Shown here piece by piece: positions 13,671 to 40,040 of a stretch of DNA of 64,000 nt. How positions within the stretch are numbered: position 1 is the first letter of the stretch; each line of letters starts with the position of its first letter. The DNA is from Methanoculleus methanifontis (GTDB taxonomy: Archaea > Halobacteriota > Methanomicrobia > Methanomicrobiales > Methanoculleaceae). Location of the stretch: NCBI RefSeq assembly GCF_030464365.1, contig NZ_VCYI01000001.1, forward strand, positions 62,001 through 126,000. Direction: 5' to 3'. Under the pieces are notes generated by a model. That model was not told where the DNA came from, did not search any database, and saw only the letters and a list, made by a program, of their open reading frames with translations. The translations under genes and the position numbers were made by a program.

Positions 13671-13683
13671 GGTCCCTTTTTTG

Positions 13684-13976
13684 GGTTTTGTTGAAACCCT
13701 CTCCCGGAGGATGAATTATCTCCGGATAATCCATGTCTCACCGACGCACGCGAAGGCGCGAAGAACGCGAAGTCTGGATGGGTATTGACTGTCTCCCTTC
13801 GCGGCTTCGCGGCTCGAAGCCTACGGCTTCTCACGCTCCCGTCCTGTGGACAGTCGCGGCTCGCACCTACGGTGCTCAAGCTCGCTGCGCTCGCACTTCG
13901 CGTGAGACCCACATCACCCGCCTCTATCGGCAACCGAGTGTTATCCAGGGGTTGTGGAAAGCATTTCAACAGGGCC
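13684..13976. mobile_element. MITE-like element copy A (293 bp), IS6-like ends
   Basis: The ends are GGTTTTGTTGAAA on the left and, on the complementary strand, GGCCCTGTTGAAA on the right, 10 of 13 bases identical. An exact 8-bp direct repeat CTTTTTTG flanks it (13676-13683 and 13977-13984). The inside is an imperfect palindrome with a CGCGAAG hairpin and no gene. Compared with copy B (37971-38172) it carries 91 extra bases at 13811-13901. Terminal sequence and 8-bp duplication resemble IS6-family ends; no transposase is present. Confidence 0.78.
13811..13901. repeat. 91-bp palindromic cassette inside MITE copy A
   Basis: Absent from the otherwise collinear copy B, and bounded by a repeated CTTCGC. 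Its first 66 bases (13811-13876) are the exact reverse complement of 24138-24203. It holds GAAGCCTACGGCTTC and GCACCTACGGTGC hairpins. Confidence 0.8.
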
Positions 13977-14108
13977 CTTTTTTGCTTGACGGCCCGAACC
14001 TTCGGGCTGCTGTGCGGCTTACCTCTTCCGCGGAAGAGTATACTGTTGTCTCTGCCCTGTTTGCCTCACACAACTTGCGATGGCCCGTAGGATCTTATGC
14101 ACCACCCG

Positions 14109-36436: not shown

Positions 36437-37486
36437 ATGGGATTTAAAGATCTTATCGACGATTTCTTGAACCGTAAATCTTCGGATCAGGAGAGTGTTC
36501 CGAATGACGTGCTGGAATCTGACCCGTTCGTGGAGCAAGACCAGGAGATCTTCGGCCGGATCGAGGACTGGCGGAAGTACCAGGAAGGGTTTTACCGGTT
36601 CCTCAGGCACCCGGTCAGGGTGATGGTGGAAGAGCCCTACACCGTCCTCTTCATATCCGTCCCCGCCGCGCTTCTCCTCTTCATAGGCGGGTTTATGAGC
36701 ATGGTGGCGTCTTACGGCATCGGCGCCCTCTTCACGACGACGATGATCGACGACGTCTTTGTTTTCGCGCTCCTCATCGCCATCGTGCCGCTTTCGCTCC
36801 TCGACTTCAAGGAGGCGTTGCGTATATCGAGCATCGAGGCGTCGCTCCCGAACTTCTTCCGTGACGTGGCCGGGATGAACGATTCAGGCATGACGCTCCC
36901 GCATGCGGTTCATATAGTCTCGGAGGGCGAGTATGGGGCGCTCACGCCGCACATCCGCAAACTTGATGCCGAGATGTCCTGGGGTGTCCCGTTCGTGGAA
37001 GCTATCCGCCAGTTCGGAAAGGCCGTGAGCACTCCGCTCGCGGAACGGAGTGTCGACCTGATCGCCCACGCGAGCTCCGCCGGCGGCGATGTGAGTGAGG
37101 TTCTGCGTGCGGCGGCGCACGACGCGTACGAGTTCTTCAACCTGCAGTCGGAGCGCAAAAACGGGATGATGATCTATATGATCATCATCCTGATGTCGTT
37201 CTTCGTCTTCCTCTTCGTCATCGGGGTGCTCTCGGGCACCTTCCTCACCACGATGGCGGAGGCGGGCGAGGCGGTCGCTGCATCGGGCTCAAGTTCGGCG
37301 CAGTCGTTCATGGGCAACGTGGACCTCTTCCTCTACAACCGGCTCTTCTGCCACGCCGCGCTGATCCAGGGATTCTTCTCGGGGCTGGCGGCGGGCATCA
37401 TGGGCGAAGGCCGGGTAGTCGGTGGGCTGAAATACTCGGCGCTGATGGTGTTTATCGCCTGGCTGGCGTTCCGGTTCATTATCTGA
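36437..37486 (+). CDS. Type II secretion F-family membrane protein 2
   Basis: 349 residues. An acidic cytoplasmic N-terminus of about 65 residues precedes paired helices (about 73-125). The soluble T2SSF domain is at 135-240 (LPNFFRDVAGMNDSGMTLPHAV; ASSAGGDVSEVL), followed by helices at about 245-265, 310-325 and 335-349. It starts one base after the stop of its paralogue. Together with it and the ATPase it should form the inner-membrane engine of a type IV pilus-like system. No pilin gene follows; the operon ends at a T-tract. Confidence 0.88.
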   Translation: MGFKDLIDDFLNRKSSDQESVPNDVLESDPFVEQDQEIFGRIEDWRKYQEGFYRFLRHPVRVMVEEPYTVLFISVPAALLLFIGGFMSMVASYGIGALFTTTMIDDVFVFALLIAIVPLSLLDFKEALRISSIEASLPNFFRDVAGMNDSGMTLPHAVHIVSEGEYGALTPHIRKLDAEMSWGVPFVEAIRQFGKAVSTPLAERSVDLIAHASSAGGDVSEVLRAAAHDAYEFFNLQSERKNGMMIYMIIILMSFFVFLFVIGVLSGTFLTTMAEAGEAVAASGSSSAQSFMGNVDLFLYNRLFCHAALIQGFFSGLAAGIMGEGRVVGGLKYSALMVFIAWLAFRFII

Positions 37487-37514: not shown

Positions 37515-37588
37515 ACGACGTTTCGATGTGCAAGCGAAAGCGAGAAGGAGCACTGGAAGTAGGGAGCGCGACATTTTGGTGAATTATT

Positions 37589-37862
37589 GAAGTCGTCCCA
37601 AAAATACCACGGGATTGAAGATTCACAGGGTTCTGAATGTAATTACGAGCGTTCATACCGAATTGAATGATCTCCTGTATCAAATTGCTGAAACGGCTTC
37701 CCGTTGGTTATCGCACCTCCGGTGCTCCTGCTCCGGTTCTACGAACCATCGCATATCGCCACGCGGGAGTGATCGGGGAGGTGCGACCGGAGGGAGCTTG
37801 AGAAGACCGAAGGTCTTCGAACGGGTGTCCCCCTCCCGGCAGAGGCGTTTTGGGATGACCTC
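37589..37862. mobile_element. Second MITE-like element (274 bp) with 17-bp inverted ends
   Basis: Left end GAAGTCGTCCCAAAAAT and complementary-strand right end GAGGTCATCCCAAAACG agree at 13 of 17 positions. Its right 170 bp resemble the repeat at 25969-26137. No open reading frame of interest and no obvious flanking duplication are seen. Confidence 0.55.
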
Positions 37863-37970
37863 CATATTTCCTTTTCCCATTAAACTCCTCCGTGCGATGA
37901 AAGAAATACGTTGCTATTTAACTCTTGGCCCTGACGTGAGAAAGTGAGGCGGGAGAGGCAATCATAAAAC

Positions 37971-38172
37971 GGCTTTGTTAAACCCCTCTCCCGGAGGATG
38001 AATTATCTCCGGATAATCCATGTCTCACCGACGCACGCGAAGGCGCGAAGAACGCGAAGTCTGGATGGGTATTGACTGTCTCCCTTCGCGGCTTCGCGTG
38101 AGACCCACATCACCCGCCTCTATCGGCAACCGAGTGTTATCCAGGGGTTGTGGAAAGCATTTCAACAGGGCC
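37971..38172. mobile_element. MITE-like element copy B (202 bp), IS6-like ends
   Basis: The ends are GGCTTTGTTAAAC and, on the complementary strand, GGCCCTGTTGAAA. The flanking exact 8-bp repeat is CATAAAAC (37963-37970 and 38173-38180). Apart from the missing 91-bp cassette it is almost identical to copy A at 13684-13976. The different duplications show two separate insertion events. Confidence 0.8.
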
Positions 38173-38327
38173 CATAAAACGGTCTGGGAACTTCTTTGAC
38201 AGGAGGGTGGATGCGATGCTTGGAAGGACTGGCCCTAAGGGGTGGAGTTGAGAGGAATGGGGTTTTGGGTCGCAACTGACAGAACTTCAGGCGATGAAAA
38301 CGCCCGGTACACTGGACCGTGGGGACA

Positions 38328-38543: not shown

Positions 38544-40040
38544 TCACTTTGCTTCTTTCGCCGCCGTGCCATCGTTCTGAAAAAACTCCAGAATAGCCTC
38601 CATATCCACGTGCTCCTCGAAGTGCCGGGCCAGTTCGTCGTAAGAAGCCGCGGTTCCGAGGGCGCCTCCGCCCGCTTCCGCCACCGGTTCGAAGGCTACG
38701 CCCCGGCGTTCCGAGAGGTGGGCGAGGAGGGCGTTTACGGCGCCGGGGTTCTGGAAGAGGCCGTGCATGTAGGTCCCGAAGACCAGGCCGTCGGGGGTTG
38801 CGGCTCCTTCCCCGGCGAACGCCTCGGGCACCCCTCCCCGCTCCGTCTCGCCCATGTGGATCTCGTAGCCCTCCACCTCCCCCATCGCCGGGAGGATGGG
38901 CCCGGGACCGGTTGCCCGGCGCCGGACCTGCACCGTCGTCTTGCGATAGCCGGAAAAGGCCGTCACGACGTCGAGGAGCCCGAGCCCCGGGTATTCCGCA
39001 GGGTTCTCCGACTCGATGGCGCCGTCATGGATCCGGCTCCCGAGCATCTGGTAGCCACCGCAGATCCCGATGATCGGGACGCCCCGCTCCCGGGCGAGCC
39101 GGAGTTCCTCCCCTACGCCGTTGCGGTTCAGCACGGCGAGATCCTCGACGGTGTTCTTTGTTCCCGGCAGGATGATGCAGTCGTAGCCGGAGAGCGATCC
39201 GCCGGGCGGGACGTAGTCCACCGTTGCGTGCTCTTCGAGGAGTTCGAAGTCGGTGAAGTTCGAGATCCGCGGGAGGCGGAGGACGGCGATCCTGACCGGG
39301 CGGGCGGCCGATCGCTCTCCTTTATCGGCGATCGAGAGCGAGTCTTCGCTCGGCAGAGGGATATCGGTGTAGGGAACCACCCCGAGCACCGGGACGCCCG
39401 TGAGTTCCTCGAGTTTTTCGACGCCCGGGGCGAAGAGCCCGGGGTCTCCCCGGAACTTGTTGACGATGACCCCGGCGACGAGGGGCCGGATATCCTCCGG
39501 GAGGAGGGCGAGCGTCCCGTAGACCTGGGCGAAGACCCCGCCCCGCTCGATATCGGCGACCAGGACGATGGGGAGGCGGAGCGAGCGGGCGAGCCTGATG
39601 TTCGCGATGTCGCGGTCGTAGAGGTTCACCTCCGCCGCTCCTCCGGCACCTTCCGCCACCACGTTCCCGAAGCGCCGTTTCAGGCGCTCGAACGCGGCGA
39701 CGGCCTCGGTAAGAAGCGTATCGGTCTCCCTGTAGTAGTCCCGGATCTGCACATCCTTATAGGGTCGGCCGAGGAGCACCACCTGCGAGACAGAATCGCC
39801 TTTCGGCTTGAGGAGAACCGGGTTCATGTCTGCCTCCGGTTCGACCCCGGCCGCGAAGGCCTGGACGGCCTGGGCGATCCCGATCTCGCTCCCGTCGGCC
39901 GTGACGTAGGAGTTGAGGCTCATGTTCTGGGATTTGAACGGCGCAACCGGGATTCCGCGGCGGTAGAGCGCACGGCAGAGCGCCGCAACGGTCATACTCT
40001 TGCCCACGTGGGATGCAGTTCCGAGCACGATGAGAGACAT
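38544..40040 (-). CDS. cobQ: Cobyric acid synthase
   Basis: 498 residues of CobQ/CbiP, which amidates the corrin side chains b, d, e and g with glutamine and ATP in adenosylcobalamin synthesis. The N-terminal dethiobiotin-synthetase-like domain starts with GTASHVGKS (P-loop, 7-15) and [13 protein letters not shown]. The C-terminal class I amidotransferase has the nucleophile in [10 protein letters not shown] (about residue 323) and the His in [10 protein letters not shown] and later TYMHGLF. It is divergent from the B12-dependent ribonucleotide reductase gene across 59 bp with a shared TATA-like box. Confidence 0.96.

What the first reader, a model, noticed from the sequence alone, without database searches (positions are those of the whole stretch)
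37971..38172. Copy B with a different 8-bp duplication proves a second insertion event
CATAAAAC flanks this 202-bp element at both sides, differing from CTTTTTTG at copy A, while the bodies are almost identical. Independent duplications rule out a simple segmental duplication and fix the element ends at GG...GGCC.
Basis: seen in the sequence. Interest (0 to 1): 0.7.

Follow-up and report, generated by a model that had tools for sequence, protein, structure and literature searches.

The report
IS5-type MITE in a Methanoculleus archaeon
The 202-bp sequence is a small "jumping" DNA element with no gene of its own, and its flanking 8-bp duplication and relatives in other species show that it moved into this spot by itself; this is an ordinary kind of element, although its hairpin core turns out to flip orientation between species.

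Summary
A 202-bp element at 37971-38172 is flanked by exact 8-bp repeats CATAAAAC; copy A (13684-13976) is flanked by CTTTTTTG. Copy A is 293 bp, not 202: it carries 91 extra bp in the middle.

The genome is a Methanoculleus (methanogenic archaeon). The element belongs to a MITE family found only in that genus among genomes searched. Across 26 elements with the end motif GGYYYTGTTRAA (23 of this family, 3 others), 19 have an exact 8-bp duplication and 23 at most one mismatch; no other length from 4 to 12 gives an exact match. Relatives lacking copy A keep a single CTTTTTTG. Copy B's own empty site cannot be shown, because its flanks have no counterpart in the relatives held.

The likely mobiliser is a 1.0-kb IS5-family insertion sequence with the same ends and 8-bp duplications, present in this genome at contig ends.

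So B is an independent transposition, not a segmental duplication: a new member of a known kind. One unexpected extra: the central 24-nt loop flips in place between CGCGAAG arms. At one orthologous site it is forward in two species and inverted in five, and two orthologues match perfectly through the core after one is flipped.

The parts
37971..38172 (+). Copy B: 202-bp MITE, no coding capacity
37963..37970 (.). left 8-bp target-site duplication CATAAAAC
38173..38180 (.). right 8-bp target-site duplication CATAAAAC
37971..37983 (+). left terminal inverted repeat GGCTTTGTTAAAC
38160..38172 (-). right terminal inverted repeat GGCCCTGTTGAAA (read on the - strand)
38034..38059 (+). left arm of the inner hairpin, CACGCGAAGGCGCGAAGAACGCGAAG (CGCGAAG units)
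38060..38083 (+). 24-nt loop TCTGGATGGGTATTGACTGTCTCC, the segment found inverted in other copies
38084..38100 (+). right arm of the inner hairpin, CTTCGCGGCTTCGCGTG
13684..13976 (+). Copy A: 293-bp copy of the same MITE
13812..13902 (+). 91-bp extra hairpin-rich block inside copy A (the same slot holds a 47-bp x 21.7 tandem array in the 2,478,101-bp genome G019)
13676..13683 (.). left target-site duplication of copy A, CTTTTTTG
13977..13984 (.). right target-site duplication of copy A, CTTTTTTG

Best explanation
Copy B is a non-autonomous miniature inverted-repeat transposable element (MITE). A DDE transposase of the IS5 family, encoded elsewhere, recognises the ~13-bp ends GGYYYTGTTRAAA together with subterminal sequence, cuts out or copies the element, and inserts it at an AT-rich target with staggered cuts 8 bp apart; gap repair gives the 8-bp duplication (preferred form S-WWWWWW-S). 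B and A are separate insertion events. SHOWN by sequence: the ends, the 8-bp duplications at many sites, empty sites at sister copies, and a 1.0-kb IS5-family element with matching ends and 8-bp duplications in the same genome and genus. INFERRED: that this IS, or a close relative now lost, supplied the transposase; whether movement is cut-and-paste or copy-out; that the inner hairpin plays no part in transposition.
For: Exact duplications at B and A. 19/26 exact and 23/26 near-exact 8-bp duplications; no exact match for k=4-7 or 9-12; shuffled pairs average 0.5. Single-copy target in empty sites: CTTTTTTG in G003, G008, G029, GAAATAAG in many relatives, CTTATGTC in G033. IS with TIR GGCTCTGTTGAA: 1010 bp with exact GATGCTTG duplication in G029, transposase NF033579 E=1.5e-68 and PF01609 9e-22, carrying an intact D, D, and Y(2)R(3)E(6)K signature (read directly from the sequence). 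In the window's own genome this IS sits at contig ends, and four left/right end pairs share an identical outer 8-mer. The IS left end resembles the MITE left end and IS right the MITE right (alignment scores 15 and 13) more than crosswise (6 and 8). No open frame of useful length inside.
Against: B's own empty site is not visible. Many genomes with MITEs show no held copy of this IS (compare), and two genomes with the IS (G021, G029) have no MITE hit, so the pairing is by ends, not by strict co-occurrence. The shared similarity is short (13-bp ends plus weak subterminal match). Several insertions are old: A, C10, C12, C23 and C26 are shared with other species, so current activity is not shown.
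Confidence: 0.93

Rival explanations
1. Copy B arose by segmental duplication, ectopic recombination or gene conversion from another copy, not by transposition.
For: Copies are about 98% identical, the genome is rich in related repeats, and the 91-bp block is present or absent between copies and orthologous sites.
Against: Flanks differ completely at every copy, each copy has its own 8-bp duplication, and empty sites with single targets exist for sister copies. Gene conversion of element interiors after insertion remains possible.
Confidence: 0.03
2. It is a MITE, but mobilised by another family that also makes 8-bp duplications (for example IS6, ISL3 or IS1595), not by the IS5-type element.
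For: 8-bp duplications are not unique to IS5-type elements (general knowledge); many MITE-bearing genomes lack a held copy of the IS5 element.
Against: The IS5-family element has the same 12-13-bp ends, the same duplication length and end-by-end subterminal similarity, and lies in the same genome. End-pattern searches of four more genomes gave MITE-sized or 0.5-kb pairs; their interiors were not all inspected.
Confidence: 0.07
3. The repeat is a REP-like palindromic repeat whose flanking 8-mers are chance or target bias.
For: The CGCGAAG hairpin core occurs at over 20 further places in this genome without the terminal repeats.
Against: 19/26 exact 8-bp duplications cannot be chance; the stand-alone cores inspected lack the GGYYYTGTTRAA ends.
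Confidence: 0.01

Closest known systems
IS5-derived MITEs of methanogenic archaea (e.g. the M. acetivorans elements listed with IS5 partners, PMC3852290)
   Same: small, non-coding, multicopy, inverted ends matching an IS5-family element in an archaeal methanogen
   Different: those are listed with DR of 0 or 3 bp; here 8 bp; different genus and sequence; the present element has a CGCGAAG hairpin core
ISH2 (a MITE of Halobacterium mobilised in trans by ISH8)
   Same: archaeal MITE whose termini relate to those of an IS that moves it in trans (PMC10264941)
   Different: 10-bp duplications and a different IS
ISH1 (Halobacterium IS; 8-bp duplications in PMC10264941; IS5-family assignment from my own knowledge)
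   Same: 8-bp target duplication like the Methanoculleus IS5-type element; plasmid relatives of the transposase include many haloarchaeal IS5 elements
   Different: subgroup assignment was not tested; the haloarchaeal plasmid relatives listed are about 29-34% identical
Correia repeat enclosed elements of Neisseria
   Same: MITEs reported to undergo inversion (review PMC10969869)
   Different: reported there as inversion of the element; here only the core between inner arms flips while ends and flanks stay put

Membership tests
MITE (prokaryotic) | short (under about 0.6 kb), no transposase gene | tested here: met
   202 bp; no ORF of useful length inside
MITE (prokaryotic) | terminal inverted repeats | tested here: met
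   GGCTTTGTTAAAC / GGCCCTGTTGAAA, 9 of 13 identical in B
MITE (prokaryotic) | target-site duplication of fixed length, with single-copy target in empty sites | tested here: met
   8 bp, 19/26 exact; empty sites for A, C10 and C23; B's own empty site not available
MITE (prokaryotic) | multicopy, dispersed | tested here: met
   five copies with an 8-bp duplication plus degraded ones in this genome; 16 of 35 Methanoculleus genomes, none of 46 from other genera
MITE mobilised by an IS5-family element | autonomous IS with the same ends and duplication length | tested here: met
MITE mobilised by an IS5-family element | mobilisation in trans by that transposase | not testable with these tools
   needs a transposition assay
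IS5 family (for the 1.0-kb partner) | DDE_Tnp_1 transposase with Y(2)R(3)E(6)K signature | tested here: met
   NF033579 and PF01609 hits; YRERNKVETAFSVLK in the translation
ISH1-like subgroup of IS5 | 8-bp duplication and subgroup-level protein similarity | tested here: inconclusive
   8-bp duplication met; no ISfinder subgroup comparison was possible; attempted end search in a Methanomethylovorans relative found nothing

The most novel reading that the evidence does not exclude
The MITE carries an invertible cassette: the 24-nt loop, with any hairpin block inserted next to it, flips in place by recombination or replication template switching between inverted (CGCGAAG)n arms, repeatedly across Methanoculleus species. 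The arms also act as a slot where hairpin modules are gained, lost and amplified into tandem arrays.
Probability: 0.8. Interest if true: 0.5.

Novelty: new member of a known kind. Interest (0 to 1): 0.36.

Why it matters
It defines a MITE family in a biogas-relevant methanogen genus, names its likely IS5-type mobiliser, and gives clean empty/filled sites that date insertions. The duplications also show how contigs of this draft join across the IS. The in-place flipping of the core at one orthologous site offers a natural, countable assay for inverted-repeat-mediated inversion in archaea.

Tried and rejected
Segmental duplication: rejected by independent duplications and empty sites. Autonomous parent inside G019:C1:222314-223546, where the MITE ends are 1233 bp apart: rejected, the interior is a 47-bp x 21.7 tandem array, not a transposase. 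Empty site for B: tried with right flank, left flank and joined flanks against 35 genomes; no homologue. B derived from C10 because both are 202 bp: dropped, since different 8-bp arm units are missing (GGC kept in B, GAC kept in C10). Rfam found only tRNAs in the window. Literature search found no report of MITEs in Methanoculleus in the held library. TIR/duplication search on plasmid relatives of the transposase found none.

Full report
CHECK. The 202-bp element at 37971-38172 is flanked on both sides by CATAAAAC, and those are the only two copies of that 8-mer in the window. Copy A at 13684-13976 is flanked by CTTTTTTG, also the only two copies. The bodies agree at 98-100%, but A is 293 bp because of a 91-bp extra block. 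At B the repeat can be extended to CATAAAACGG, because the right flank begins with GG as the element does; the other copies fix the boundary.

HOST AND FAMILY. The window is part of a 2.61-Mb draft genome in 30 contigs. The element was found in 16 of 35 genomes of the same genus and in none of 46 from other genera (E <= 1e-12); most exact-match records are titled Methanoculleus, the rest Euryarchaeota MAGs. Copies with their own duplications in this genome: B CATAAAAC, A CTTTTTTG, C10 GAAATAAG, C12 CAAAAAAG, C23 CTTATGTC/T. Of eight elements fetched from G012, seven have exact duplications.

TARGET DUPLICATION TEST. With boundaries set by the end motif, 26 elements were tested: 23 insertions of this MITE family, including degraded ones, and 3 other elements with the same ends (96, 623 and 744 bp). 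Left and right flanks match exactly over 8 bp in 19 and with at most one mismatch in 23; no exact match occurs for lengths 4-7 or 9-12; shuffled pairing gives 0.5 on average. The duplicated 8-mers are AT-rich, mostly with G or C at the outer positions. A caution: the coordinates came from a scan that ranked end pairs by end fit and duplication fit together, although most of these short loci offer a single good end pair.

EMPTY SITES. Copy A: G003, G008 and G029 lack the element and keep one CTTTTTTG; G004 and G030 have it. C10: many relatives have an uninterrupted site with one GAAATAAG. C23: G033 keeps one CTTATGTC. Copy B: neither flank is found as a real homologue in any of the other 34 genomes. 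The intergenic stretch between the archaellum-type membrane gene (36437-37486) and the cobyric-acid-synthase-type gene (38544-40040; both names are my reading of the translations) is about 1.07 kb here and about 0.18 kb in G003, so this region is hypervariable.

MOBILISER. The end pattern also marks contig ends of this genome. They belong to a 1.0-kb IS whose intact form is seen in G029 (1010 bp, GATGCTTG on both sides) and G021. Its transposase is IS5 family (NF033579, E=1.5e-68; PF01609). In the window's genome four left ends and four right ends on different contigs share an identical outer 8-mer: GAAGGAAC, GGAAAACG, ATTATAGC and AATCTTTC, so this IS makes 8-bp duplications here. MITE left resembles IS left, and MITE right resembles IS right, more than crosswise. 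Distribution is only partly matched: the IS end is in G000, G011, G021, G029 and G031, MITEs in 16 genomes. The IS ends in G000 and G021 are identical over 127 bp, which suggests recent spread of the IS (inference), while several MITE insertions are shared between species and so older.

HAIRPIN CORE AND INVERSION. The element folds better than shuffles as DNA (z=-3.05) and RNA (z=-3.37). The inner stem is (CGCGAAG)n arms around a 24-nt loop. In other copies the loop is in the opposite orientation relative to the ends. At the C26 insertion site, orthologous by both flanks, the loop is inverted in G000, G019, G004, G010 and G031 and forward in G003 and G030. Flipping the G030 core makes it match G004 without a difference through the core and the right side, and G003 against G010 rises from 89% to 95%. 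G019 and G003 are each a single contig, so misassembly is unlikely. Two elements of G012 are inverted relative to each other, including an inserted hairpin block: identity rises from 80% to 97% on flipping. Mechanism inferred: recombination or template switching between the arms.

OTHER VARIATION. At the A site G000 and G004 carry the 293-bp form and G030 a 210-bp form without the block. At the C23 site G000 has 293 bp, G030 197 bp and G019 1233 bp with 21.7 tandem 47-bp units.

VERDICT. The element belongs to a MITE family with an IS5-type partner that I did not find described in the held literature: a new member of a known kind, with an unusual flipping core.

Noticed in passing
C26-site orthologues: L008, L316, L290, L297, L298, L299, L314: The hairpin loop of one orthologous MITE insertion is forward in two species and inverted in five; flipping restores near-perfect identity.
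   Followed up: yes
L129:2438-3454 (G019), inside the MITE at the C23 site: A 47-bp unit repeated 21.7 times at 99% match, amplified from the same hairpin block that occurs once in copy A.
   Followed up: partly
L265:251-677 (G019, at the empty copy-A site): An unrelated 86-bp unit repeated 5 times at 100% match next to the orthologous gene end.
   Followed up: no
L061, L062, L064 (G000 C23:13360, C2:59802, C27:176): Larger non-coding elements of 744, 623 and 515 bp with the same ends, full of short hairpin modules with differing stems and constant connectors.
   Followed up: partly
L063:1154-1249 (G000 C14:34653): A 96-bp minimal element with the same ends and exact GGATTATC duplication.
   Followed up: partly
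window 37585-37870, left of copy B: A repetitive mosaic (CGCACC..GGTGCTC / GGTTC..GAACC hairpins) found at many places in this and related genomes.
   Followed up: no
genome-wide, e.g. L009, L013, L014, L016: The CACGCGAAGnCGCGAAGnnCGCGAAG arm occurs 32 times in this genome, mostly outside the MITE, and also in one other genus of the order.
   Followed up: partly
G000 contig ends C27/C3, C8/C16, C29/C18, C10/C6: Shared 8-mers beside IS ends predict four contig joins in this draft assembly.
   Followed up: yes
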